Source of the DNA: Nitrosopumilaceae archaeon | GTDB lineage: Archaea > Thermoproteota > Nitrososphaeria > Nitrososphaerales > Nitrosopumilaceae | Assembly: GCA_007571225.1 (NCBI GenBank) | Contig: RKRU01000070.1 | Location: 1 to 11,748 of the forward strand | Direction: 5' to 3' | Length of the DNA: 11,748 nt | Part shown: positions 1 through 11,748 of the stretch, piece by piece | Position numbering within the stretch: the stretch's first letter is position 1 | Layout of the letters: each line of letters opens with the position of its first letter | Position numbers and translations under genes: made by a program | The notes under the pieces: generated by a model | What the model was told of the DNA's origin: nothing | The model's input: the letters and a program-made list of their open reading frames with translations, nothing else | Databases searched by the model: none

Positions 1-4
1 GTCG

Positions 5-47
5 GAGGGGGCATCAGGCGAGGGGGCATCAGGCGAGGGGGCATCAG
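5..47. repeat. 15-bp tandem repeat, about three copies
   Basis: The unit GAGGGGGCATCAGGC occurs perfectly at 5-19 and 20-34 and as a partial third copy (13 of 15 bases) from 35. It sits upstream of the NUDIX gene and may continue or begin left of the window. No coding role is evident; it could be the tail of a repeat in an upstream intergenic region. Confidence 0.85.
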
Positions 48-55
48 ATGCGCCC
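37..55. other. Hairpin at end of tandem repeat
   Basis: The last repeat copy forms an inverted repeat: GGG (37-39) pairs with CCC (53-55), one mismatch follows, then GCAT (41-44) pairs with ATGC (48-51) around the loop CAG. It is followed by CAAAA rather than a T-run, so a role as transcription terminator of an upstream gene is possible but unproven. Confidence 0.4.
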
Positions 56-105
56 CAAAACAGGCCAGATTAACACACAAATAGCTTATCACATGCACAC
101 ACACG

Positions 106-621
106 ATGAAGAAGAGGAAGGTATACGACGGCAGAATATTGGGACTGAGCGTATACGAAGGGGAGCACAACGGGCGCCACATAAGACGCGAGATAGTCGA
201 GCACAACGGCGCTGCTGCCATACTAGCACTGGCCGGCGACGACGACGATCTAATCCTTGTAAAACAGGACAGGTTCCCGCACGGCACGACCATCGAGATT
301 CCAGCAGGAACACTTGAGGAGGGAGAGGAGCCGGCCAAATGTGCTACAAGGGAGCTTGAAGAAGAGACCGGCTACATAGCAGGTATGATGACGCCCCTCA
401 TATCCTACTATCCGTCCATAGGGTACAATACGGAAGTCATCCACTGTTTTGTGGCAACCGGACTGAGACCCTCCAAGAACGGGCCTAGCCCGGATGACGA
501 CGAGTCCATCGAGGTCATAAGGGTAGGGTGGACCAAAGTCATGGAGATGATCAAGACAGGCGAGATCCAAGACTCAAAGACCATATGCGCCGTGCTGTCG
601 TATGTTGCAGACAAAAAATGA
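106..621 (+). CDS. NUDIX hydrolase, probable ADP-ribose pyrophosphatase
   Basis: A 171-residue cytosolic NUDIX hydrolase. The full Nudix box is present at residues 68-90: G68, E74, then R82-E83-L84 with E86, E87 and G89. The glutamates of this box bind the divalent metal for cleavage of a nucleoside diphosphate linked to another group. The preceding IEIPAG and the later SIGYNTEVIHCF segment are typical of the ADP-ribose/NDP-sugar pyrophosphatase branch (NudF-like), and the length fits that family. The ATG at 106 has no Shine-Dalgarno site (the upstream bases are an ACAC run), so the message may be leaderless; only a weak AT-rich element (79-90) lies at the expected TATA distance. The stop codon abuts the stop of the convergent PhoU-like gene with no gap. 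The family is secure; the exact substrate is inferred. Confidence 0.88.
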   Translation: MKKRKVYDGRILGLSVYEGEHNGRHIRREIVEHNGAAAILALAGDDDDLILVKQDRFPHGTTIEIPAGTLEEGEEPAKCATRELEEETGYIAGMMTPLISYYPSIGYNTEVIHCFVATGLRPSKNGPSPDDDESIEVIRVGWTKVMEMIKTGEIQDSKTICAVLSYVADKK

Positions 622-1635
622 TCATTGTGGTTTGCTGTACAACGGTTTTACCAAGTCTGCAACATCGGCCCACGACCTAGCTATCCTTCCATACATATGC
701 AACACATCTAGAAAGTCGACTGGAATCTGCCCTCCATTGTTACTTGCATCGTCATGTGACGAAGTAGTACGAAGTCCGGCCAGCCGTTCTTGGAACCTGC
801 GGTGGAGTGATATAGACTCGATCGCCAACAGCCGGTCGGGGGCAGTAAAGGCATCGATGGATTTTGCGGCCATCTTCTCAAACCCCTGTACCGACCCAAA
901 TATCAGCTGAGACTGCTCGGGCAGCAGAGACGACCTCGTCACCAGCCCCGCAAGCTCCACAATAGAGTCGCCTGCATTCTCAAGCAGGTTGGCGGCAATC
1001 CTATAGTCAAGTATGTCGATGTTGCCCAAGTTAAAGGCGCCTGCCAGCCTCCTGTCTGCTAGCGCGCTCCTTATCATACGTACAAGTAAAAAGTATTGTC
1101 GGTTGACCTCGATGTCGCGCCGCGGTATGGTCTGCAAGTTGGACTTGTCGCCGGATATGAGGCCACGCGTCACATCCCCGCACATTCCCACCGCTATCGA
1201 CGACATGCGTTTGAGTATCTTGGCAGGACTCAGAGTAGCAGTATCTAGCAGAAACTGCATCTCTATGCGCGAGGCATCTTCTTCCATAATCTCCATTCCC
1301 ACTAGGCGCCTAGTGGAGTTGCGGATCTTCTCCCTGTCTTCTACAGGTATTATAGATGCGCCGGACTCTATGGTTATAACATCATACCCGAGCAGATAGG
1401 CCCCCGTGATGTCTGCTGCAATGTTCTCTTCGGCAGGCAACGGGTATGTAATCAACAGGTCCGACATTGGCCTGGCCTCCTTGCCTCCTGCTGATATTGA
1501 CAGTGAGTCGGAGCCCACCTGTTCGATCTCCACTTGGCTACCCTTTGTAAGTCCGTGCGCGTCGACCCACTCCTTTGGAAGCGACACCATGGTGCTGTGC
1601 CCTATCTTCTGGAGCCGTCTTGTAAATTTAGCCAG
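622..1635 (-). CDS. AbrB-PhoU fusion, phosphate-uptake-type regulator
   Basis: The N-terminus is a SpoVT/AbrB swapped-hairpin DNA-binding domain (about residues 1-45: RRLQKIGHSTMVSLPKEW, then KGSQVEIEQ). It is followed by a long helical PhoU-like region (about 95-325), an arrangement common in thaumarchaeal phosphate uptake regulators. The first ATG (1588-1590) would cut off the first strand of the AbrB domain. The frame upstream reads LAKFTRRLQKIGHST with no stop until TAA at 1651-1653, and its only plausible initiation codon is CTG at 1633-1635, so I place the start there (337 residues instead of 322). It is transcribed divergently from the CoA operon. It may bind DNA and respond to phosphate or metabolite state; that role and its targets are inferred from the domains only. 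Confidence 0.8.
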   Translation of the reverse strand: MAKFTRRLQKIGHSTMVSLPKEWVDAHGLTKGSQVEIEQVGSDSLSISAGGKEARPMSDLLITYPLPAEENIAADITGAYLLGYDVITIESGASIIPVEDREKIRNSTRRLVGMEIMEEDASRIEMQFLLDTATLSPAKILKRMSSIAVGMCGDVTRGLISGDKSNLQTIPRRDIEVNRQYFLLVRMIRSALADRRLAGAFNLGNIDILDYRIAANLLENAGDSIVELAGLVTRSSLLPEQSQLIFGSVQGFEKMAAKSIDAFTAPDRLLAIESISLHRRFQERLAGLRTTSSHDDASNNGGQIPVDFLDVLHMYGRIARSWADVADLVKPLYSKPQ

Positions 1636-1650
1636 TTTAAACCAATATAA

Positions 1651-1660
1651 TTAATTTAAG
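1651..1660 (-). promoter_or_regulatory. Possible TATA-like element of the PhoU-like gene
   Basis: On the minus strand the sequence CTTAAATTAA lies 16-25 bases upstream of the proposed CTG start. A second AT element (AAAATATAAG, 1677-1668) lies 33-42 bases upstream. Either could be the TATA box, giving a leaderless or very short-leader transcript. Assignment between them is uncertain. Confidence 0.3.
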
Positions 1661-1667
1661 CCATATT

Positions 1668-1677
1668 CTTATATTTT
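1668..1677 (+). promoter_or_regulatory. TATA box of the CoA operon
   Basis: CTTATATTTT is centred about 27 bases upstream of the pantoate kinase ATG at 1700, the archaeal TATA-to-start distance. It predicts a leaderless transcript beginning at or next to the ATG. No Shine-Dalgarno site precedes that ATG (ACAACAAAT), which fits. The whole divergent promoter region is only 64 bases, so the two units may share control. Confidence 0.55.
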
Positions 1678-1699
1678 GTGTATAATTTAAACAACAAAT

Positions 1700-2698
1700 A
1701 TGAAATATGCAGGTTCAATTATGGGAGAGGCAGAGGCATTCTGTCCGGCGCATATAACGGGGTTCTTCAAGGCGTGTGATTGTTCTGCTGTACGTAATTA
1801 TCACGATATACAGGATGCCAAGGCGCATACGGGCTCCATGGGCGCAGGCTTTTCGCTCTGCATAGGCGTGACCACAAGCGTGCGCATAATAAAGGGGCGG
1901 CAAGACGCGGCGCCGTACACTATAACTGTCAGTGGATATGGCGGCAACAGCAACAGCGACGGCTGTGGCACAAACGTCTCCAGAGCCATAGTCAAGAAAT
2001 TCCTAGAGTTGGCAGGAAGCCCAGACGACATAACGATGGACATCAAGCACGACATAGCGGTACCCGTGGGGTACGGTCTTGGAAGCAGCGGTGCAGTCGC
2101 ACTCTCGCTTGCATACGCGCTCGACTCTGCATTAAGGACCAACCTTGGAAGGGAGAAGAGCGGCACGATAGCCCACAACGCGGAGATAGAATGTAGGACA
2201 GGCCTCGGCGATGTACTGGCCTCCTTTCACGGTGGATTTGAGATCAGGACCAGTCCTGGCGCGCCCGGTGTGGGCAGCGTCCAGAAGATCTGCCTGAATA
2301 AAATAACCATAATAATGATCTGCCTTGCGCCCATATCCACCAACAAGTTCATCAGCAAGCACCTCTCTAGGATCAACGGGCTTGGCGGGGTGATGGTGGA
2401 CCGGCTGCTGAAGACCAAAGACTATATGCACTTTCAAAGGATGTCGCTAGAGTTTGCCGAGTATGCCAATGTCATAACCCCAAACATGAAGGCAATAATA
2501 GACGAGTTAGATGATATGGGGGCGCAGTGCGGCGTCGCGCTGTTCGGCGAGACTCTGTTTTGTATGATGCCCGCAGGCAGCAGTATGGAATCTGATATAA
2601 TGAGGGTGATGCGCCGGCATCCAGAAGGAATCACCATCAAGGCGGGACTAGACGAGGCCGGGGCCAGGATGTGTACTGCAAGGCAGGCCGGAGTATAG
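1700..2698 (+). CDS. pok: Pantoate kinase (GHMP family)
   Basis: A 332-residue archaeal pantoate kinase, which phosphorylates (R)-pantoate to 4-phosphopantoate with ATP. With the next gene it forms the archaeal replacement for bacterial PanC and CoaA. The opening segment AFCPAHITGFF (residues 13-23) is the substrate/nucleotide-side start typical of the family. The GHMP glycine-rich ATP loop PVGYGLGSSGA is at 122-132. The downstream CRTGLGDVLASFHGG (165-179) and the late ALFGETLFCM (280-289) are further family blocks. Length is normal. The start at 1700 is chosen from the TATA distance; an in-frame ATG at 1721 would also keep all conserved blocks. It is the first gene of the operon, and the next gene starts six bases after its stop. 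Confidence 0.88.
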   Translation: MKYAGSIMGEAEAFCPAHITGFFKACDCSAVRNYHDIQDAKAHTGSMGAGFSLCIGVTTSVRIIKGRQDAAPYTITVSGYGGNSNSDGCGTNVSRAIVKKFLELAGSPDDITMDIKHDIAVPVGYGLGSSGAVALSLAYALDSALRTNLGREKSGTIAHNAEIECRTGLGDVLASFHGGFEIRTSPGAPGVGSVQKICLNKITIIMICLAPISTNKFISKHLSRINGLGGVMVDRLLKTKDYMHFQRMSLEFAEYANVITPNMKAIIDELDDMGAQCGVALFGETLFCMMPAGSSMESDIMRVMRRHPEGITIKAGLDEAGARMCTARQAGV

Positions 2699-2704
2699 AG
2701 AGAG

Positions 2705-3595
2705 ATGGCAACATCATCCAGTACAGGGGGGCGCGAATATGAACATGTGGATTCCTGCGTGGCCGCTCCTGCGGCAGCAAAGGCGGCCGCCGTAGCAACA
2801 GCTAATATCTGCAGCACGCCGCCGAACATTCCAGATTCGCATCCGAGGGCAGAGTCGCTACGCACACGCCACAGGCTAGTGGAGAGCTTTGAGTGTGGGA
2901 TGGTGGCAGCAGAAGGCCTGCTAGCTCACGGCAGAGGAGAAGCGTTTGACTACCTACTAGGCGAGAAGAGTAGCGAGATGGCCAGGAGAGCCTGTAGGGC
3001 AGCAGCTGCCGCGCTGTACATTGCAGAACGGCCCGTCATATCCGTAAACGGGAATCTGGCCGCATTGTGCCCAGCAGACACGGTACATTTGGCGCGGCTT
3101 ACAGGCGCCAGACTAGAGATAAACCTCTTTTATGACAGCCAGAAGAGAAGGGCGGCAATTGCCAGACATTTGTACAGACACGGCGCAACAAGCATACTAG
3201 GCACGGACCCAGAAAGGATGGTCGTATTATCAGGGACGGACTCTGCCCGCAGGATGGTCGACGAGAACGGGATTATGGTAGCAGATGTAGTGGTAGTCCC
3301 GCTAGAGGACGGGGATAGGACCAGCGCCCTAAAACGGGCGGGCAAAAGGGTGATTGCATTTGACCTCAACCCTTTGTCTAGGACTGCCAGGACAGCAGAC
3401 ATTGCCATAGTGGACAACATAACAAGGGCAATCAGACTGTTGGCCGCAGAGTACCACATAATGACAGAATCACGTATGTCACCAAGGGAGATCATCGCAG
3501 AATTTGACAACGAGCGCAACCTAAAGGAGACTGTAAGTTACATAGTTGAGCGCAACCTAGCAGTACGGGAAGAAGAAAAAGAAGAGGAGAAATAA
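2705..3595 (+). CDS. 4-phosphopantoate--beta-alanine ligase (phosphopantothenate synthetase)
   Basis: Archaeal phosphopantothenate synthetase (PPS, formerly DUF137) joins 4-phosphopantoate to beta-alanine using ATP to give 4'-phosphopantothenate. Conserved blocks run in order: IPDSHPRAESL (42-52), AHGRGEAFDYLLGEK (74-88), AERPVISVNGNLAALCP (107-123), LEINLFY (137-143), and PLEDGDRTSAL then AFDLNPLSRTA (199-228). The core begins near residue 42; before it is an Ala/Ser/Thr-rich extension not seen in usual family members. No alternative ATG lies between the extension and the core, and the candidate GTG codons fall only at residues 16 and 19. The tail is highly acidic and its codons carry the ribosome binding site of panB. 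The core identification is secure; the start is uncertain. Confidence 0.87.
   Translation: MATSSSTGGREYEHVDSCVAAPAAAKAAAVATANICSTPPNIPDSHPRAESLRTRHRLVESFECGMVAAEGLLAHGRGEAFDYLLGEKSSEMARRACRAAAAALYIAERPVISVNGNLAALCPADTVHLARLTGARLEINLFYDSQKRRAAIARHLYRHGATSILGTDPERMVVLSGTDSARRMVDENGIMVADVVVVPLEDGDRTSALKRAGKRVIAFDLNPLSRTARTADIAIVDNITRAIRLLAAEYHIMTESRMSPREIIAEFDNERNLKETVSYIVERNLAVREEEKEEEK
3584..3589 (+). promoter_or_regulatory. Shine-Dalgarno site of panB (decides a CTG start)
   Basis: GAGGAG lies inside the last codons of the upstream ligase gene and ends seven bases before the CTG at 3597. The first ATG in the panB frame (3630) has no such site in front of it. This site is the main evidence for starting panB at 3597 and suggests translational coupling to the upstream gene. 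Confidence 0.6.
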
Positions 3596-3596
3596 A

Positions 3597-4463
3597 CTGA
3601 CACAACAAAGAGTAACCATCGGCGACATAATGCAAAAAAGACAGGCCGGATCGATATCCGTAGTCACCAGCTACGACTATACGCTGGCCGCGTTATGCGA
3701 CGGTGCGGGGGTGGACATACTTTTGGTGGGGGACAGTGCCGGAATGGTCATGCTCGGCTACGACAGCACCATACCTGTATCCATGAACGAGATGTGCATG
3801 TTTACGGGGGCCGTAAGCCGGGCAAGAAGAAGGGCAGTTGTGGTTTCTGACCTACCGTTCATGTCATACCAGGCAAGTAGGGAGGATGCGGTAAGAAACT
3901 CAGGCAGGCTAGTCAAGGCGGGCGCCGATGCAGTAAAACTAGAGGGAGGAGTCAAGATGGCCCCCCACGTAAAAAGCATAGTCGATGCGGGCATACCGGT
4001 CATGGGGCACATAGGACTGCAGCCCCAGACGGCTGTACTCAGAGATGGGTACAGGGTACAGGGCAGGACGGCAGCCAGTGCAGAAAGACTGATCAACGAT
4101 GCAAAAAGTCTTGAGGATGCGGGGGCTTTTGCAATAGTGCTTGAGATGGTGGCATGCGAGGCGGCCGAAGAGATCACACACAGTGTCGGCATACCTACAA
4201 TCGGGATAGGTTCTGGCAACAGTTGTCCTGGCCAGGTGCTTGTAATACAGGACATGCTTGGAATGTATAACAAAAAGGAGCTAAAGTTTGTAAAGAGGTA
4301 TGCGAACCTGGCCGATCACATTACAGAGGCCGTACACGGTTATCAAACGGATATAATCACAAAAAAATTTCCCGCAGAGGAGAATGCATTTCGTATGGAC
4401 GACGGCGAGTATGAGATGTTAAAGAAGGGACGACGCAACGGTAGTGGGGGTGATCTGGGATGA
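3597..4463 (+). CDS. panB: 3-methyl-2-oxobutanoate hydroxymethyltransferase (ketopantoate synthesis)
   Basis: PanB transfers a hydroxymethyl group from 5,10-methylene-tetrahydrofolate (or the archaeal tetrahydropterin) to 2-oxoisovalerate, giving ketopantoate, the first committed step towards CoA. Numbering from the ATG at 3630, the markers are TSYDY (13-17), the metal-site LVGDSAGM (32-39), SDLPFMSY (73-80), the KLEGG block (103-107), GHIGLQPQ (126-133), the catalytic-glutamate segment IVLEM (169-173), GIGSG (192-196) and FPAEEN (247-252). The N-terminal helix of the family (VTIGDIMQKRQAG here) begins before that ATG. In that frame the only reasonable start is CTG 3597, one base after the previous stop and behind GAGGAG, giving 288 residues. 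The stop overlaps the coaBC start in ATGA. Confidence 0.92.
   Translation: MTQQRVTIGDIMQKRQAGSISVVTSYDYTLAALCDGAGVDILLVGDSAGMVMLGYDSTIPVSMNEMCMFTGAVSRARRRAVVVSDLPFMSYQASREDAVRNSGRLVKAGADAVKLEGGVKMAPHVKSIVDAGIPVMGHIGLQPQTAVLRDGYRVQGRTAASAERLINDAKSLEDAGAFAIVLEMVACEAAEEITHSVGIPTIGIGSGNSCPGQVLVIQDMLGMYNKKELKFVKRYANLADHITEAVHGYQTDIITKKFPAEENAFRMDDGEYEMLKKGRRNGSGGDLG
4446..4455 (+). promoter_or_regulatory. Near-perfect Shine-Dalgarno site of coaBC
   Basis: GGGGGTGATC matches the full 16S rRNA-complementary consensus GGAGGTGATC at nine of ten bases, four bases before the ATG at 4460. It lies inside the last codons of panB. It confirms the coaBC start and points to reinitiation after panB. Confidence 0.7.
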
Positions 4464-5740
4464 CTGCAAAGAGCAGCGACAGGACCTACGGGGATGCACA
4501 ACACCACCACCCCTCGTTTGACATACGATCAGAGAGCGGTACCGAGCTTGCAGGCAAAAAGATCGTCCTTTGCGTGACTGGAAGTGTCGCCGTATACAAG
4601 GCAATCGAACTGGCCAGACTGCTCATGAGGCATGGCGCCGACGTCACCTGCGTGGCAAGCAGGGCTGCAACAAGACTGATCGGTCCCCAGTATCTAAAGT
4701 GGGCCACAGGAAACGATGTAGTTACCAAGCTTACAGGCGACCTAGAGCACATAAGGCTTGCAGACTACAATAGGTCAGACCAAGTTGTAGTATATCCGGC
4801 CACTGCTAGCACCATAGGAAGACTTGCAAACGGAACAGACGACGGCGCAGTAGTATCTGCCACGCTTACCGTTGCCCTAGGCTCGGGGATCCCCATACTG
4901 ATATGTCCTGCCATGCACGAATCCATGTACGAGAATCCCGCAGTGAGGAGAAACATTGATTTTCTAAGGGAACAGAACGTAGAGTTCATCCAGCCGTCAA
5001 TAACAGAAGGCAAGGCAAAGGTGCCAGAGCCAGAACAGATACTAGATTACATACTGAGCAGGACAACAGCCCCGCTTGCCGGCAAAAACATACTGATAAC
5101 TGCCGGACCCACAGTCGAGTTTATCGATCCCGTACGAGTAATTACAAACCTCAGTTCTGGAAGGACCGGCGTACTGCTAGCAGCCGAATTCTTAGCTGCA
5201 GGAGCCGACGTCACTATGGTATATGGGCCCGGCAGGGAGGAGCCGCCCGGCGGAGTCAACGTAGTGAGGGTGCAGACAGGCCAAGAGATGCTAGATGCAA
5301 TCAAGGGTCTGGAGTGCAGATTTGATGTTGTAATAATGGCTGCCGCAGTATCAGACTATGCGCCCGCCAATAAATCACAGGCAAAGATTGCAAGCGCGAG
5401 TATGCGCGAGTATGCGCTCAATCTAAAGAGGGTCCCAAAGATCATAAATGTAATAAGAGAGATACAAAAGGATGCGATGCTAGTGGGATTCAAGGCACTA
5501 GCAGATGTGTCACGTAACGAACTAGTAGATGCAGGCCGCGCCATACTAGACGAGTCGGGTGCAGACCTAGTGGTTGCAAATGATGTAGGACGTAGGTACC
5601 AGGAGAACCAGAATTTTAACAACGTCATAGTGATGGACCGAAACGGCACAACCTCCGAATCTGGATGGCAGCAGAAAGAGAGTACTGTTAGGTTTATCAG
5701 AAGGGAGATCGAGGGCAGAATGACACTGCAGCAAGGGTAA
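4460..5740 (+). CDS. coaBC: Bifunctional phosphopantothenoylcysteine decarboxylase / phosphopantothenate--cysteine ligase
   Basis: A 426-residue CoaBC (Dfp). The C-terminal CoaB half condenses 4'-phosphopantothenate with cysteine, and the N-terminal FMN-dependent CoaC half decarboxylates the product to 4'-phosphopantetheine. CoaC spans about 32-200: the flavin-site CVTGSVAVYKA (38-48), the likely catalytic histidine H97 in EHIRLADY, VVYPATAS (110-117) and PAMHESMYENP (150-160). The histidine at 153 replaces the bacterial Asn of PxMN, a variant I recall from other archaeal CoaBC proteins. CoaB starts about 206: ILITAGPTVEFIDPVRVITN (211-230), LSSGRTG (231-237), AAAVSDY (294-300) and the lysine segment NLKRVPKI (321-328). 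The first 30 residues are a His-rich, poorly conserved leader. It is the last gene of the operon, starting in an ATGA overlap with panB. Confidence 0.93.
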   Translation: MTAKSSDRTYGDAQHHHPSFDIRSESGTELAGKKIVLCVTGSVAVYKAIELARLLMRHGADVTCVASRAATRLIGPQYLKWATGNDVVTKLTGDLEHIRLADYNRSDQVVVYPATASTIGRLANGTDDGAVVSATLTVALGSGIPILICPAMHESMYENPAVRRNIDFLREQNVEFIQPSITEGKAKVPEPEQILDYILSRTTAPLAGKNILITAGPTVEFIDPVRVITNLSSGRTGVLLAAEFLAAGADVTMVYGPGREEPPGGVNVVRVQTGQEMLDAIKGLECRFDVVIMAAAVSDYAPANKSQAKIASASMREYALNLKRVPKIINVIREIQKDAMLVGFKALADVSRNELVDAGRAILDESGADLVVANDVGRRYQENQNFNNVIVMDRNGTTSESGWQQKESTVRFIRREIEGRMTLQQG

Positions 5741-5864
5741 CTGTTTACGCCCCCCACCACACCTAAATGACCGACTCTAGGCACAAATTTGTCAAATTGT
5801 TTACGCTGGACGTAAGCAGTTACACTGAATCTTGTATCATATGGGCAGTAAAGCCATGCATACC

Positions 5865-5970
5865 GTGACATCAGGCATGGTCGGCATCTAGTCACAAGGT
5901 TACAACATGCCACAGGCGCCCCGCGTTGTGGCAGCGTGACATCAGGGCATGGTCGGCGCCCGGTCACAAG
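5865..5970. repeat. Imperfect 35-bp direct repeat pair in intergenic region
   Basis: Copy one (5865-5899) and copy two (5936-5970) share GTGACATCAG, GGCATGGTCGGC and GTCACAAG, with a one-base insertion and a few substitutions; the period is about 71 bases. Each copy begins with GTGAC and carries the complementary GTCAC about 26 bases on, so each can fold or act as a dyad. A further GTCAC lies at 5986-5990. Function unknown; placement between coaBC and a promoter would suit a regulatory or untranslated-RNA element. Confidence 0.7.
5908..5933. other. Seven-bp stem hairpin between the repeats
   Basis: TGCCACA (5908-5914) is complementary to TGTGGCA (5927-5933) around a 12-base GC-rich loop. No T-run follows on the plus strand, so it is not a classical terminator. 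It lies exactly between the two 35-bp repeats, 167 bases after the coaBC stop, and could be part of a structured RNA or operon tail. Confidence 0.4.
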
Positions 5971-6007
5971 CCCGTGCTGCCTGCAGTCACATGAATAATC
6001 CGCATTA

Positions 6008-6044
6008 CACGTGAACTATAAGCAATTAAAGATCCATGCACGTG
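6008..6044 (+). promoter_or_regulatory. Promoter with paired CACGTG palindromes
   Basis: CACGTG occurs at 6008-6013 and 6039-6044, 31 bases apart (about three helical turns). Between them is a TATA-like AACTATAAG (6014-6022) and a second AT-rich AATTAAA (6024-6030). A TATA box there would start transcription near 6043-6047, inside or next to the second palindrome, so a dimeric regulator on both sites could block it. This also argues that the ATG at 6036 is not the real start of the following gene. The regulator is unknown. Confidence 0.4.
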
Positions 6045-6080
6045 TGTTATTTGATGGAATCAAATTATAAAAAAGGAAAT

Positions 6081-6890
6081 ATGGAGACATGGAACGAAGT
6101 GGCCCCCCGATACCACAAGAGGTGGGCAGAACAGATGTGTGGTCCCATGCAGAGTACGGAGAAACTGATCAGCGATCTGGGTGTACGTCAGGGGGATCAT
6201 GTTCTTGATGTGGCGTGCGGAACCGGGATGGTTACAAAGATGCTCAGTAGGGCGGTAGGCAGGACAGGCAGGGTTGTAGGCGCCGATACGTCCATCTCTG
6301 CAATCCAGATAGCAAAAGAATGGAACCAGAACGAGATATCCAACACGGATTTTGTAAATGCAGATGCGGAGAACTTTGCCTTTGTAAACGAGTTTGATGT
6401 GGTGACGTGCCAGTACGGCCTGTTCTTCTTTCCCGATGCGCCCAAGGCACTGGCAAACATGAGAAGGAGTCTAAAGGAGTATACCGGACGCATGGGAATA
6501 GTCGTGCACGGAAGCAACACGCCGTTTTTTACCGCGATTCTGCGCGCAGCAGAAGAGTACATACCCGACTACCATCCTGCAGGGGCGCCACGCTTTGATA
6601 GGTATGCCACAAAAGACGGACTGCAAAGAGAGGTGCAGGGGGCCGGATTCACAAATATTACAGTCAAGGACTATGTGTTTGTGTACAGTCCTGGAACGTT
6701 TGAGGAGTACTGGAAGGAGTACCAGAGGTATGTGCCGGCGCAGGTCAGAGCAAAGATAGACGCGCTCGGCACGGACAAGACGCGCAGGTTCAAAGATGAG
6801 ATACTGCGCAATACGGCGCCATACACAGAAGACGATACTGGGATCATAACATTTCCATGGCAAGTTTTGGTGCTCACTGCGATGCGTTGA
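6081..6890 (+). CDS. Class I SAM-dependent methyltransferase (UbiE/COQ5-like fold)
   Basis: A soluble methyltransferase of about 269 residues. Counting from the ATG at 6081, motif I VLDVACGTG is at 41-49, the ribose-binding acidic residue D69 is in VGADTS, NADAEN (93-98) is the adenine-side motif, and FDVVTCQYGLFFFPD (105-119) is the motif IV region. Substrate cannot be read from the sequence: relatives methylate quinone precursors, small metabolites or lipids. Upstream in-frame ATGs exist at 6036 and 6054 (284 and 278 residues). I prefer 6081 because AAGGA ends three bases before it and METWNEVAPRY matches the usual beginning of such proteins. It is followed 25 bases later by a small membrane protein gene. 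Fold certain, role unknown. Confidence 0.82.
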   Translation: METWNEVAPRYHKRWAEQMCGPMQSTEKLISDLGVRQGDHVLDVACGTGMVTKMLSRAVGRTGRVVGADTSISAIQIAKEWNQNEISNTDFVNADAENFAFVNEFDVVTCQYGLFFFPDAPKALANMRRSLKEYTGRMGIVVHGSNTPFFTAILRAAEEYIPDYHPAGAPRFDRYATKDGLQREVQGAGFTNITVKDYVFVYSPGTFEEYWKEYQRYVPAQVRAKIDALGTDKTRRFKDEILRNTAPYTEDDTGIITFPWQVLVLTAMR

Positions 6891-6915
6891 TAACAAGGGA
6901 TGTGGTAACTACCAT

Positions 6916-7458
6916 ATGGCAAGGGACAAGAACAAAAGGAGTAAGAGGAGTAAAAAGGGCGGCGCCCAGGGCGGCCATTCGAAGAACCCAAAAAAGCAGC
7001 AGGGCTCAAAATTTGTAGGATTCCTCAAGAAGCGGGCGCCAATATACTTGGCGGTGACCGCACTCTTTCTGGTCTTTGTCATACCGGAACTTACAAAGGG
7101 TAGCCTAGAGGATATAATGCCCGAGCTGTCAGGAGAAGACAAACGCATAACTGACATACTCATGGATTATAGTGGCCCAAACGAGACCGGACTGACCACG
7201 GCAGAAGCCATCTCGAATAAGATTACCGAAGAGTTCGGTGACAGAATATTCGGCGAGAGTGAGAGTACGGTGGACATTACAGTGAGTCCCACAGGTGACG
7301 GCAGTACCACAGACGATACGTATGATGTCCTGTTTGAATTCAAGTCTAAGGAGGATTCGCTGAACTATACGTGGACTGTGGATGCCGGTACCGGGGAGAT
7401 AACTGCCGACGACACTGCCTCAAAACGTATCATAGATCTCGTGAACTTTTACGACTAA
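6916..7458 (+). CDS. Single-pass membrane protein with basic N-terminus, unknown function
   Basis: A 180-residue protein I do not recognise by name. Residues 1-40 are strongly basic (Lys/Arg/Gly/Gln-rich), then one hydrophobic segment at about 42-58 (PIYLAVTALFLVFVI). The acidic remainder, about 60-180, has alternating strand-like stretches (STVDITVSPTG, YDVLFEFKSKE, LNYTWTVDAGTGEI). By the positive-inside rule the N-terminus would be cytoplasmic and the acidic domain outside. The W-x-V-D-x-x-x-G-E-I pattern near the end recalls PepSY-type small domains, but this is a weak resemblance. It lies 25 bases after the methyltransferase gene on the same strand, probably in one transcript. The open frame, bias towards coding use and typical layout make it a real gene. 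Confidence 0.7.
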   Translation: MARDKNKRSKRSKKGGAQGGHSKNPKKQQGSKFVGFLKKRAPIYLAVTALFLVFVIPELTKGSLEDIMPELSGEDKRITDILMDYSGPNETGLTTAEAISNKITEEFGDRIFGESESTVDITVSPTGDGSTTDDTYDVLFEFKSKEDSLNYTWTVDAGTGEITADDTASKRIIDLVNFYD

Positions 7459-7479
7459 GCAGGAGGAGGACGGCCTGCT
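7458..7479 (+). terminator. Possible hairpin after the membrane protein gene
   Basis: AGCAGG (7458-7463) pairs with CCTGCT (7474-7479) around a ten-base loop, beginning at the last base of the stop codon. No strong T-run follows, so a terminator function is only suggested by position between convergent genes. Confidence 0.25.
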
Positions 7480-7526
7480 ATTCAGTATAAACATCATCAT
7501 CACCTGATATTCCATTCGGGCTTGCT

Positions 7527-7635
7527 GCAACAAGGGTGTAAGGCGATCGCAGCTGTTAGATTGTATGTTCACTTATCTTGTACAAACTTACGCTCAACGC
7601 AACAAAGGGGCAAGGCGATCGCAACCGCTAGATTG
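7527..7635. repeat. Two diverged 37-bp repeats with GCGATCGC core, 72-bp period
   Basis: Copy A (7527-7563) and copy B (7599-7635) match at 31 of 37 positions. The shared core is AAGGCGATCGCA, containing the palindrome GCGATCGC. The stretches following each copy retain faint similarity, so the unit may be a 72-bp tandem duplication that has decayed. It fills much of the 7459-7731 gap between convergent genes, where I see no other feature and no gene. It lies at the edge of the lower-G+C block. Confidence 0.75.
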
Positions 7636-7731
7636 GCCGTCAATGCTAGTCTGATGTACATTACCCGCATGGACTCAGGTGGATATTATAATCATATTGC
7701 CCTAGGCCATACATATGCAGCTTGTAGCCAC

Positions 7732-10700
7732 TCATGGAACTCGTTGCCAGTCGTTTATCACCCAGCGAAACTGCCGGGTGGGAATTCTTTCTATAAAGGG
7801 ACCGTATTTTTGAGCCGGGTTCTGGATTTCCGTTATGTGGGGGTTGTCAAAAACATTCTCCACCACATAAATCCAGTAATCATCTTGCAGTCTCTGTGCC
7901 GTGGCCCACTCGTGGTTGGTAAGCATTATGTTGCCCGTGGTCCTGTGTGACTTTACCTCTATCCTTCTACTGTCAAATGTCGCCACATCATATCCACAAT
8001 TCTCTCTAGAGCAGTCCCTTATCATGCCTCTAGAGCCCGCATCTAGAGTCCTTGATCTCTCATAGTCTAGAACTGCCTTCATTCCAGCCTCGTCTACTTG
8101 TAACCGTAGGTCGACTCCGTTGTCAGCAGTGATCTGGGCCACGCCTATCAGCTCCTCTTTTGTTCTGGTCTGATATGTCTCGTCGAGCTTGGCCAGATCA
8201 TCAGATACCGAATTGCGTAGGTTTTTGATCTCACGTCTCTTTGAATTAATTATCTTCTCTATGTTTGGCTCGTCTGGCTGTTGCTGTAATTCATGTATGT
8301 CACCGTTTAATTTTGAGATCTTGTTGCCATAGTGACTCTTCCGGGCATCCTGTGTCTTCCTCTTGATTACTCTTAACTTTTGATCGACTTTGGACTTTTG
8401 TTTGCCGGCTGCATCTAAAACAAACTCCCTGATTCGCCCACAGGCACCAATAATGGCATCGGGATTGATTGGCGCATCAGAGTCCTTGTACGACCACATG
8501 CTGCGCGCATCCACCTGATGAATCACGCCGTCTGTCTGCTCATAGAATGCTGCTATTTTGGAATCCCTCTGTCGTGATTCTCCGTCAAGTACTGTAATCT
8601 TGTATACGCACAGTACTCCATCTTGTGTTTCATGACCAAGGGAAGCCACATAATCAGATATTGCCTTGTTGATTATCTTGTCAATGCCAGAGTGGCCCAG
8701 AGCCAGATAGTCATAGGACTCTTGCTGCGCGATATCACGATCAAAGACACCCGTTATTCTGTCCAGCTCAAGTTCTTGCGCGTGTCTCTGTGTGGGGGTT
8801 ATCTCATAGACACGATTCTTGTCATTTACCAACCGCATCTTGCCGCCGCTTGATTCTACAAACGTCTGTAAAAACCGCTTCACCTCATGTATGACAACTG
8901 CATTTTCTCGCATCTTTTGTATTGTATCCACGCCGGATGGATCCAGTTTGTTACCTTCCAGCAACATACTCCGCTTCTCCTGCACGTCACGCTTCATGGA
9001 CTCGATCTCAGACAAGAGCGCCTTGATCTTTGGCTCCCACTGGTTGTTGGGTATCCTTCTAAGCTCGTCATAGTACCTCCCAAATTCATCGGGACCAATG
9101 AGCAGACCCATAATATCATACACGACATCCCCCATCGATCTCTTTATCGACTCTATCTTGTCAAGCAGTTTTTGCATTATATAGCCATCTATACTGATTT
9201 TAGGATCCAGCACATAGTTGTAATAAAAGACCTCCTGATCTTGTCCGATTCTATGTATTCGTCCCATTCTCTGCTCCAGTCTGTTTGGGTTCCACGGGAT
9301 GTCATAGTTTATCTCCATGTTGCAAAACTGCATATCGATTCCCTCTCCTGCAGCGTCGGTGCACAATAGAATTTCATTGCCTCGAGAGTTACGAAACTCG
9401 TCAAGCGACTGTTCTCTAGTTGTTATGGACATGGTACCATCTATTATGCCAACCTTGTAGTCCAGAGACTCGGCAAGATACTTTAGGGTATCCTTGTACT
9501 CTGTAAACACTACAAGTTTCGCATCCGGCTTGTCGGTCTTTAATTTGCGTATGGAACTCACTAGATGTTCCAGTTTGGAGTCGTGATTACAGTCTTCAAG
9601 CGCATCTAAAATGGGTTTTATGGCACGTCGCTCCTCTTCTGCATCAAGTATTGTTACTGCATCAACATCCTCTGTATCCTCAAGGTACTCGTCTGCATCC
9701 TCCTTAATCATACTCATGATCTTATCAGCATCAAAGTTCAAACCGAGTTTGTCCAGTCTGCTCCTCAACGACATCTCCAATGAATAAAATGATGAGCTTG
9801 CCCTTTTCTTGTATATGTGGCGCAAAAAACGTATCATGTTATTCTCCTGCGGTGTCCGTACCCTAGACTGGATGAAGTTGAAATAATCCTCCAACATATT
9901 CAGAACTTTGCGTTCCTTGTCTGAGAGTGGGATTTCGATTGTCTTGCTGGTTCTAGCAGGAAATACGGACTTGCCATCTAGATCCACCACCTTCTCCTTT
10001 ATGTTACGGGTCCACAGGTAGGAGGCGGTTTGTATATCGGTTGCAAACTTGTCAAGCAGGTTTATGCGCGCCATGAAATTCTCATCTGAACCATCATGAG
10101 GGGTAGCAGTCAACAGTATCAAAACATCGGTTTTGGCGGCCAGATGTTTTCCCAGCTTGAGGTTGTTGGTTTTTTTATTCATCTTGTGTGCCTCATCTAC
10201 AACTACAGCATCAAACTCCGGGGCAAGCTGGCTCATAACATGATCCTGTTTAAGATAGTCTATAGATGCCACATATGAGAAACTGTCCCCAAACATAGCA
10301 TGGGACCGCACGTATGCCGCATCTAGAATCTCAGTTGGAATATCAAACCTCTGTTCCAGCTCATTCTTCCATTTTATCTGCAACGACTTTGGTACCACGA
10401 AAAGTAGGCGTTTGGCTATTCCCCGTGCGCGAAGCTCAGAGATTATCAGGGCTGCTGTTATCGTTTTTCCCAATCCGACCTCGTCTGCGATCAATATTCG
10501 GGGATTTTCAAGGCCCCAGATTACTGCGTTAATCTGGTGTGGAAACAACTTGATCTTTGTAGATGATGCCAGAACGTACGGATTGAACCTGTACTCTGTG
10601 AATAATCTGTGGGCGTCGATGCCGATGATAAACTGCAGTGCTGTGTTGGGCTTGTCCATTTTACCCAGTGGATCATAAACAAGGTCAATTTTATCATACG

Positions 10701-10806
10701 TATAATATCTGAACTTACCATTCATCATAACCTGAATAGTTCTTGGGTTTATGGAGCAAATGGTGCCTTTGCCGTCTGGCGTAACAACTCTGTTTCCTAC
10801 TTCCAT
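7732..10806 (-). CDS. SNF2/RapA-type helicase with C-terminal DUF3883 domain (defence-associated)
   Basis: A 1024-residue cytosolic DNA-dependent ATPase. Residues 3-43 look like a small SH3/KOW-type barrel. The SNF2 N-terminal ATPase domain (about 85-300) has ADEVGLGKT (107-115, Walker A), VVDEAHK (202-208) and LLTATPHDG (231-239). The helicase C-terminal domain (about 410-535) has LVVFTEYKDT (431-440), CTDAAGEGIDMQ (482-493) and QRMGRIHRIGQ (512-522, arginine fingers). After a long linker and a charged coiled coil (about 800-885), a DUF3883 domain lies at about 905-985, with GYD (938-940), EVK (950-952), LTNHEW and YWIYVV; EVK resembles a PD-(D/E)xK nuclease active site. The architecture resembles DrmD-like helicases of DISARM and helicases of DUF1156-methylase clusters. 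Its start overlaps the upstream methylase gene by ten bases, implying co-translation. Helicase identity is certain; the system assignment is inference. Confidence 0.9.
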   Translation of the reverse strand: MEVGNRVVTPDGKGTICSINPRTIQVMMNGKFRYYTYDKIDLVYDPLGKMDKPNTALQFIIGIDAHRLFTEYRFNPYVLASSTKIKLFPHQINAVIWGLENPRILIADEVGLGKTITAALIISELRARGIAKRLLFVVPKSLQIKWKNELEQRFDIPTEILDAAYVRSHAMFGDSFSYVASIDYLKQDHVMSQLAPEFDAVVVDEAHKMNKKTNNLKLGKHLAAKTDVLILLTATPHDGSDENFMARINLLDKFATDIQTASYLWTRNIKEKVVDLDGKSVFPARTSKTIEIPLSDKERKVLNMLEDYFNFIQSRVRTPQENNMIRFLRHIYKKRASSSFYSLEMSLRSRLDKLGLNFDADKIMSMIKEDADEYLEDTEDVDAVTILDAEEERRAIKPILDALEDCNHDSKLEHLVSSIRKLKTDKPDAKLVVFTEYKDTLKYLAESLDYKVGIIDGTMSITTREQSLDEFRNSRGNEILLCTDAAGEGIDMQFCNMEINYDIPWNPNRLEQRMGRIHRIGQDQEVFYYNYVLDPKISIDGYIMQKLLDKIESIKRSMGDVVYDIMGLLIGPDEFGRYYDELRRIPNNQWEPKIKALLSEIESMKRDVQEKRSMLLEGNKLDPSGVDTIQKMRENAVVIHEVKRFLQTFVESSGGKMRLVNDKNRVYEITPTQRHAQELELDRITGVFDRDIAQQESYDYLALGHSGIDKIINKAISDYVASLGHETQDGVLCVYKITVLDGESRQRDSKIAAFYEQTDGVIHQVDARSMWSYKDSDAPINPDAIIGACGRIREFVLDAAGKQKSKVDQKLRVIKRKTQDARKSHYGNKISKLNGDIHELQQQPDEPNIEKIINSKRREIKNLRNSVSDDLAKLDETYQTRTKEELIGVAQITADNGVDLRLQVDEAGMKAVLDYERSRTLDAGSRGMIRDCSRENCGYDVATFDSRRIEVKSHRTTGNIMLTNHEWATAQRLQDDYWIYVVENVFDNPHITEIQNPAQKYGPFIERIPTRQFRWVINDWQRVP

Positions 10807-11748
10807 TGCTCCAAATGAGACTGAGCCTCATCCCTCATACTTTTTCTATCTCGTTGATGCGTCTTTTTGACATCCCGCCCAGAATAATTGTAAGATGACG
10901 ATGTTGATATTCCCATGTGATCTGCTATATTTTCCAGTATGCGAACTTCTTCTTTATCATCTGGAGACTGTCCCTTCTGCCTCTTATTATGGTAATTTTT
11001 GATGAGAACCTCTACTACATCCTTGAGCAGGTTAGTATTTATGTTGTCATGATGTAATAATTGTGCCACATTCTGCGGATGTGATACAAGATAGCATAGT
11101 TGTTGGTGCAGATTGGCCGAATCGATTTCATCTGGTGCATAGTCCATTACACGTTTTAGTCCCTCAAGACGTACAACTTCATCCTTTTTCTGAGTTATTA
11201 CGCCATCTGTAGACAGTGCGGGAAGCGTTGTATTGTACGTTTGAACAATCTTTAATGCATCATCAGATGAGATTGCCCCATTGTTGAAGATCTTGTTGAT
11301 TACATAAAACGACATCTGAGGTCCCACGATATCCGATTGTTTCTTCAACAATTTTTCCACCAGTTGTTTTATTATAGTACTGCGCGCGTTTGCAAGAAGT
11401 GTCTCAAAGTCAGGCTTGCGATCCTTTTCATAACTCTTCAGTGTGGTGTGCTGGGTAGACTTTTCAAGTACCTTCCCATACACCATAATTATCAGATCGG
11501 TTATAGACAGGTCTAATAGCTGCGTATCACCAATATCATCTAAAATCTTCGATATACCGTCGTCTATCTCTGGTATCAGATCTTCATAGTATCGTACGGA
11601 ATCTACAGTAATCTTTCTGCATGTCACCATTATGGAGGACATAAAAGATGTTTTGCCCCTTGCAAGTACATTTGTAGATAACTCAGTATGTACTGCATAG
11701 CTCGAAACAACGCTCAGTTTTGCCTTCTGCAGAGCAGTAAAAAATTGA
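10797..11748 (-). CDS. C-terminal part of DUF1156-type adenine-specific DNA methylase (5' end outside window)
   Basis: 316 residues are visible and the frame is open to the right edge, so the ATG at 11640-11642 is internal, not the start. The stretch around it (ALQKAKLSVVSSYAVHTEL, then STNVLARGKTSFMSSIMVTC; visible residues 5-43) matches my recollection of the end of the catalytic fold in DUF1156 methylases, where an 'ARG..A..SSI.L.CRK' pattern precedes a long helical tail. Later DLIIMVYGKVLEKST, then a KSYEKDRKPDFETLL segment, fits their 'GKALE' region. The catalytic (D/N)PPY motif must lie beyond the window and was not seen. Such enzymes methylate adenine N6 in DNA to mark self. The stop lies ten bases inside the SNF2 helicase gene, so the two form one operon. 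If the family call is wrong, it is an unidentified helical protein coupled to that helicase. Confidence 0.62.
   Translation of the reverse strand, partial: QFFTALQKAKLSVVSSYAVHTELSTNVLARGKTSFMSSIMVTCRKITVDSVRYYEDLIPEIDDGISKILDDIGDTQLLDLSITDLIIMVYGKVLEKSTQHTTLKSYEKDRKPDFETLLANARSTIIKQLVEKLLKKQSDIVGPQMSFYVINKIFNNGAISSDDALKIVQTYNTTLPALSTDGVITQKKDEVVRLEGLKRVMDYAPDEIDSANLHQQLCYLVSHPQNVAQLLHHDNINTNLLKDVVEVLIKNYHNKRQKGQSPDDKEEVRILENIADHMGISTSSSYNYSGRDVKKTHQRDRKSMRDEAQSHLEQWK

What the first reader, a model, noticed from the sequence alone, without database searches (positions are those of the whole stretch)
7732..11748. Edge of a methylase-helicase anti-phage island in a thaumarchaeote-like genome
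A DUF1156-like DNA methylase C-terminus and a SNF2-DUF3883 helicase are translationally coupled (ten-base overlap) in a lower-G+C block beside housekeeping genes. This pair is typical of class 1 DISARM-like systems and of helicase-methylase-ATPase clusters with DUF499/DUF3780 genes. In a thaumarchaeote it could be a poorly described variant. The deciding genes are off the right edge.
Basis: partly seen in the sequence, partly recalled or inferred. Interest (0 to 1): 0.85.

Follow-up and report, generated by a model that had tools for sequence, protein, structure and literature searches.

The report
Archaeal four-gene methylase-helicase defence operon
The right end of this window is part of a probable virus-defence operon in an archaeon; it belongs to a known kind (ATPase, DNA methylase, helicase-nuclease) but to a separate branch that carries an extra small protein for which I found no published description.

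Summary
A 1,024-aa SNF2 helicase (7732-10806, -) with a C-terminal NOV_C domain overlaps by 10 bases the tail of a methylase (10797-11747, -) whose start lies off the contig; GC falls from 0.52 to 0.44. The window is the whole contig. The missing half is probably contig C69 of the same assembly: it ends with a DUF499 ATPase and 18 codons of a small gene, has the same low GC there, and its housekeeping genes lie within about 5 kb of the window's in six of seven relatives opened. Six related loci show DUF499 - small ORF (~117 aa, 202 in one) - DUF1156 methylase, with the helicase next in the four that reach it. This is a DUF499-centred system (Hma / "BREX-related"), not DISARM. It is not plain Type-1: ATPase and methylase form their own clade (support 1.0), the order differs from Hma, and a fourth gene is added. 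The small protein (AF2 pLDDT 91) passes no Pfam cut-off, but profile comparison and strand/helix order tie it to DUF7680, which fills the same slot in bacterial and haloarchaeal relatives, and DUF7680 more weakly to DUF3780. I read it as a restriction-modification-like system whose slot protein couples ATPase and methylase; that role is inferred.

The parts
7732..10806 (-). HmaA-like SNF2 helicase-nuclease, 1,024 aa: SNF2 core about 85-560, NOV_C (PD-(D/E)XK-like by family knowledge) 909-993; N-terminal region not identified
   Evidence: motifs GLGKT (111), DEAH (204), QRMGRIHR (512), GYD..ExK; D940, E950, K952 invariant in the 23 sequences of alignment A1
10797..11747 (-). C-terminal 316 residues of a DUF1156-type methylase (HmaB-like), cut by the contig end; about 556 N-terminal residues missing, judged from G501
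   Evidence: 46.5% identity over 288 aa to the full methylase of G501 (L189)
10797..10806 (-). 10-base overlap of methylase stop and helicase start
   Evidence: M1 of the helicase is an invariant column in alignment A1
7459..7731 (.). left boundary of the island: short gap between the 180-aa gene and the convergent helicase
   Evidence: in six relatives the 180-aa gene is followed instead by a 354- or 355-aa gene, then thiI, CPSF and psmB
6916..7458 (+). 180-aa conserved gene, last gene before the island; synteny anchor
   Evidence: Match in 33 of 61 genomes, all of the same genus; synteny in L250-L255

Best explanation
A DUF499-centred restriction-modification-like defence operon of a separate subtype, seen so far in archaea: DUF499 AAA+ ATPase - ~117-aa slot protein - DUF1156 adenine methylase - SNF2 helicase fused to a PD-(D/E)XK-like nuclease. 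The window holds the helicase and the end of the methylase; contig C69 holds the ATPase and the start of the slot gene. Inferred mechanism: the methylase marks host DNA at a sequence motif; the ATPase, with the slot protein as adaptor to the methylase (target reading or gating), scans DNA for unmarked sites; the helicase moves on invading DNA and its C-terminal nuclease cuts it. Shown: gene content and order in relatives, domains and conserved motifs, clade, predicted fold of the slot protein, island composition, another site in two relatives. Inferred: joining of C69 to the window, defence activity, methylation target, division of labour, role of the slot protein.
For: Domains. HmaC and HmaA are the top PADLOC models for relatives' ATPases and for G358's helicase; HmaB is first for G501's methylase and second for G358's. 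DUF499-small-MTase in 6 of 6 related loci, helicase next in the 4 that reach it. C69 ends DUF499 + 18 residues that match the start of the small family at 14 of 18 in G618 (median of 54 members 9 of 18). Same low GC on both contigs (0.44 and 0.425 against 0.52). C69's thiI, CPSF and psmB lie within about 5 kb of the window's 180-aa gene in 6 of 7 relatives opened (the seventh contig ends first). SMALL clade support 1.0 for DUF499 (6 tips) and for MTase (9 tips, 6 distinct genes). In 398 genomes the close helicase (E<=1e-120) is in 4 and the small ORF (E<=1e-4) in 4, three shared; the others are the window's own genome (small gene cut after 18 codons) and a broken remnant in G162.
Against: Linking C69 to the window needs an inversion of the thiI-psmB block beside the island, or else two partial systems about 5 kb apart; no read spans the gap and the assembly is 69% complete. 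The methylase half in the window lacks its catalytic motif. For the window's helicase alone a BREX model scores slightly above HmaA (293 against 289 bits). The closest helicases (58-62% identical, P0002-P0017) were not seen in their genomic context, and none of their listed contig lengths recurs among the 58 small proteins. No test of defence activity.
Confidence: 0.8

Rival explanations
1. Ordinary Type-1 BR / Hma system (three genes); the small ORF is a lineage-specific accessory without mechanistic weight.
For: Helicase architecture (SNF2 + C-terminal PD-(D/E)XK) is the Type-1 one in PMC12839542 section 29; HmaA/B/C models match.
Against: Small ORF between DUF499 and MTase in 6 of 6 loci of the clade and no slot-family hit in 17 of 17 loci with helicase-MTase-DUF499 order; gene order differs; ATPase and MTase form a separate clade.
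Confidence: 0.13
2. Class 1 DISARM (DrmD helicase plus adenine methylase).
For: DrmD models match the SNF2 part (306.6 bits; 270.6 bits).
Against: Below the DrmD equivalog cut-off of 610; the related operons hold DUF499 and DUF1156 genes with no further gene of 100 aa or more inside; BrxHI and HmaA models score higher.
Confidence: 0.02
3. Decaying remnant: the window's pair is what is left of a system, not an intact operon.
For: G162 holds a broken small ORF at a contig start; the window's methylase is cut by the contig end.
Against: Helicase is a full 1,024-aa frame with its motifs; C69's DUF499 is a full 899-aa frame.
Confidence: 0.05

Closest known systems
Hma system (PADLOC; Payne 2021, PMC8565338, passages seen)
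   Same: SNF2 helicase, methylase, DUF499-type AAA+ ATPase; HMM matches to HmaA, HmaB, HmaC
   Different: Described as a three-gene operon; loci here with helicase-MTase-DUF499 order lack a slot gene. That paper predicts an m5C methylase; relatives here carry TDPPY with DUF1156 and N6_N4_Mtase
Type-1 BREX-related (BR) system (Rakesh & Krishnan 2026, PMC12839542)
   Same: DUF499, N6-MTase with DUF1156, SNF2 helicase with C-terminal PD-(D/E)XK
   Different: Type-1 is said to comprise only ATPase, MTase and helicase; here a fourth gene sits between ATPase and MTase
Type-2 BR system (DUF3780, HKD/PLD helicase)
   Same: Order DUF499 - slot gene - MTase - helicase (L219, L220); the slot gene may be distantly related through DUF7680
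   Different: Window helicase has no PLD hit and carries NOV_C; the small protein is not DUF3780 by Pfam
DUF7680 (PF24728) systems: Nostoc, Sinorhizobium, Rhodococcus, Salinirubellus, Natrinema plasmids
   Same: Slot protein in the same place; hhalign probability 49-83%, same strand/helix order
   Different: Their MTases form another clade (support 1.0); the 3 helicases scanned have a weak N-terminal PLD hit below cut-off
RapA and BREX-type SNF2 helicases
   Same: RapA is the best PDB sequence match of the helicase family
   Different: No PglZ in the incomplete assembly

Membership tests
Hma / Type-1 BR | DUF499 AAA+ ATPase in the operon | tested here: met
   Not in the window; met in 6 related loci and on C69 of the same assembly; the link of C69 to the window is by synteny, GC and complementary parts
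Hma / Type-1 BR | DUF1156-type N6 methylase | tested here: met
   Window has only the C-terminus; three full relatives scanned have DUF1156 and N6_N4_Mtase over cut-off, five have TDPPY
Hma / Type-1 BR | SNF2 helicase with C-terminal PD-(D/E)XK | tested here: met
   NOV_C hit and invariant D, E, K; that NOV_C is of this superfamily is family knowledge
Hma / Type-1 BR | N-terminal Tudor domain on the helicase | tested here: inconclusive
   No Pfam hit; RapA match starts at profile position 43
Hma / Type-1 BR | locus comprises only these three genes | tested here: not met
   Small ORF in 6 of 6 related loci and begun on C69
Type-2 BR | DUF3780 gene | tested here: inconclusive
   Pfam does not call the small proteins DUF3780 (the model does recognise L219 and L220); direct profile match no better than shuffles (13 of 300 reach it); genome search without positive control
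Type-2 BR | HKD/PLD nuclease at helicase N-terminus | tested here: not met
   No PLD family up to E 1 in the window's helicase
Type-3 BR | PglZ gene in the core locus | tested here: not met
   No PglZ in the assembly while it rang in 2 of 14 control genomes (assembly 69% complete); no further ORF of 100 aa or more inside the related operons; their flanks were not scanned for PglZ
Type-3 BR | iSTAND gene | not tested
   No model used
DISARM class 1 | DrmD equivalog over cut-off | tested here: not met
   NF038317 306.6 bits, cut-off 610
DISARM | drmA, drmB, drmC | not tested
   No dedicated search
DUF7680 (PF24728) | Pfam match over gathering score | tested here: not met
   Of the 7 small-family proteins scanned (one in two readings), one (P0141) matches at E 0.04, 14.6 bits against 24; the rest do not list it
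DUF7680 superfamily | significant profile-profile match and same fold order | tested here: met
   hhalign 49% one way and 83% the other over 54-59 columns; 0 of 300 column shuffles (run one way) reach the lower score; both models b-b-b then helices, last four helices in matching order; no direct 3D superposition

The most novel reading that the evidence does not exclude
The small archaeal family, DUF7680 and DUF3780 are one superfamily of slot proteins, an unrecognised fourth core component of the DUF499-first operons and absent from the Hma-ordered branch; the window's clade is a fourth DUF499 subtype that pairs a Type-1 helicase-nuclease with a Type-2-like slot protein.
Probability: 0.5. Interest if true: 0.68.

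Novelty: new variant of a known kind. Interest (0 to 1): 0.57.

Why it matters
DUF499 systems are reported from 3,592 taxa (PMC12839542), yet what the extra gene of one branch does is unknown, and that paper found no definitive homologs of DUF3780. A compact 117-aa relative in the same operon slot would suggest that the slot protein is a general part of the machine, give a small target for structure and deletion work, and define a subtype that the HMM sets used here would call Hma or BREX-like.
Full report
What is there. The window is the whole contig C200 of a 1.29 Mb, 214-contig, 69% complete assembly. From 1 to 7458 it carries mostly housekeeping genes: Nudix, a PhoU-domain protein, a GHMP kinase, phosphopantothenate/pantothenate synthetase, ketopantoate hydroxymethyltransferase, a CoaBC-like protein, a ubiE-like methyltransferase and a 180-aa unknown. 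From 7732 to the end it carries a helicase and a methylase tail on the minus strand, overlapping by 10 bases. GC is 0.519 for 100-7458 and 0.440 for 7732-11748. The archaeal assignment rests on named homologs (P0016 'Thaumarchaeota archaeon', P0063 'Nitrososphaerota archaeon') and on family knowledge of the pantothenate genes; the genome itself is unnamed.

The helicase. Pfam finds SNF2, Helicase_C and NOV_C; the 23 aligned sequences keep D940, E950 and K952 of the C-terminal domain, the pattern expected of a PD-(D/E)XK nuclease (family knowledge). RapA is the best PDB sequence match. PADLOC gives BrxHI/HII 293, HmaA 289 and DrmD 271 bits, so the helicase alone does not name the system.

The other half. 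In the same assembly DUF499 occurs on C69 and C125. C69 ends with an 899-aa DUF499 ATPase and 18 codons of a next gene; C125 holds a 5'-open DUF499 and a 3'-open DUF1156 methylase that is a different gene from the window's. Relatives settle the layout: G501, G364, G358 and G047 have DUF499 - small ORF - methylase - helicase, and G683 and G618 have the first three before their contigs end. In G047 the small ORF is longer (202 aa) and DUF499 is cut by the stretch fetched; G364's DUF499 contains unread bases; G618's methylase start is 49% identical to G501's over 174 residues. The window's tail matches the methylases of this clade at 38-47% identity; the other rows of the list, which I capped at 20, lie at 20-25% except one 43-residue match at 37%. 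Six relatives (L250-L255) have nudix or phoU through the 180-aa gene, a 354- or 355-aa gene, thiI, CPSF and psmB in one run; the seventh opened (L249) ends too early. C69 carries thiI, CPSF and psmB, then a winged-helix-like ORF (my reading of its sequence) and DUF499, the last two at low GC (0.435 and 0.425). The simplest reading is one island between the 180-aa gene and an inverted thiI-psmB block; two partial systems about 5 kb apart are not excluded. G501 and G618, which carry this system elsewhere, have no island here (L255, L254), so the site is not fixed. About 2 kb is missing between the contigs (1.7 kb of methylase, 0.3 kb of small gene, judged from G501).

The small gene. A profile search found 58 proteins of 80-123 aa, mostly 116-120, none with a precomputed Pfam domain; only 568 candidates were scored, and the two with an organism name are archaeal (Methanosuratincola, Caldarchaeum). 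For nine of them the longest contig has exactly the length listed for a close helicase (by eye); none of these nine is among the 58-62% identical helicases. The model of P0129 has mean pLDDT 91.2: three strands, then five helices. No member scanned passes a cut-off in Pfam, and PADLOC and NCBIfam (one member) list nothing. It occurs in 4 of 398 genomes drawn from the phylum and in 5 of 400 drawn from the order.

The slot. Of 15 plasmid loci opened (13 with 8-9 kb flanks, 2 with 3 kb; picked by me from 213 records hit by C125's methylase, two of them because their annotation promised DUF3780), 10 carry DUF7680 at or near the slot, 2 carry DUF3780 and 3 neither. Eight further short stretches were fetched because they hold DUF3780. 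One viral contig, L163, also has DUF7680 in the slot. C125 has no slot gene, nor was one found upstream of L162's methylase. No slot-family HMM hits any ORF of 50 aa or more at E<=0.1 in the 17 loci with helicase-MTase-DUF499 order.

Are the slot proteins related? With five DUF7680 sequences hhalign gave 8.5% probability; with 130 it gave 56% and, on gap-trimmed alignments, 49% one way (score 29.7) and 83% the other (36.9); 300 column shuffles, run the first way, reach at most 21.2. The small-family HMM also touches one DUF7680 protein at E 0.056, and Pfam's DUF7680 touches one small protein at E 0.04. DUF7680 against DUF3780 gave 9-15% probability, scores 24.5-27.7 against a shuffle maximum of 23.6. 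Small against DUF3780 directly is not above chance (13 of 300 shuffles reach it). Column shuffles do not model a shared helical habit, so these are supports, not proofs. The DUF7680 model (pLDDT 90.3) repeats the order: three strands, a helical region with one short strand, then four helices of 12-13 residues; the small protein ends in four helices of 15, 13, 13 and 9. I call small-DUF7680 kinship likely and DUF3780 possible.

Phylogeny. FastTree on DUF499 (36 sequences) and methylase (58, some of them duplicate readings of one gene) puts the small-gene loci in one clade with support 1.0 each; the DUF7680 group, counted with C125, L163 and for the methylase L162, has support 1.0 for methylase but 0.50 for DUF499. 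Trees are midpoint rooted and I did not examine supports between clades, so I claim a separate clade, not its sister.

Literature. PMC12839542 (abstract, outline, found passages and sections 20, 21, 27, 29, 30, 33 read) defines three BR types, equates them with Hma, and proposes an RM-like mechanism that I adopt as the base of mine. Its main text has no mention of DUF7680, Thaumarchaeota or Nitroso-; its supplement could not be opened, so its data may include this clade. PMC8565338 (found passages) named Hma. 'DUF7680' is in 0 papers and 'DUF3780' in 1 of the held library; subscription papers and preprints were not searched.

Mechanism and limits. No activity has been tested. On checking I lowered the main confidence from 0.82 to 0.80, because the nearest helicases have no small protein listed from their contigs.

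Noticed in passing
G000:C125 (L019:3-5040) and G000:C28 (L007:1-1764): A second DUF499-DUF1156 system in the same assembly, its methylase 53.6% identical to one on a Nostoc plasmid; C28 starts with the C-terminal part of another SNF2 helicase that may belong to it.
   Followed up: partly
L020:4408-4782 (-): A 124-aa winged-helix-like ORF divergent from DUF499 on C69, at island GC (0.435), with no tblastn relative in any other fetched locus; possible regulator of the island.
   Followed up: partly
L210:323-559 (G162:C67): Broken copy: a small gene cut after about 67 matching residues near a contig start, beside housekeeping genes; looks like a decayed system.
   Followed up: partly
L199:1-5571 (G683:C15): Second methylase of the same clade in one genome, preceded by a 1,026-aa UvrD-like frame (my reading of its start) instead of the small gene; both G683 contigs begin in the methylase, so an assembly effect is possible.
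   Followed up: no
window 1-47: Short G-rich repeat (GAGGGGGCATCAGGC-like) at the contig's left end, seen in the letters.
   Followed up: no
L226:2649-7662: In Leptolyngbya the slot gene and the methylase are separated by a block with an S8 peptidase and an ATP-binding protein.
   Followed up: no
L235:2307-2948: DUF7680-type ORF between DUF499 and methylase that the Haloplanus plasmid gene table does not list.
   Followed up: yes
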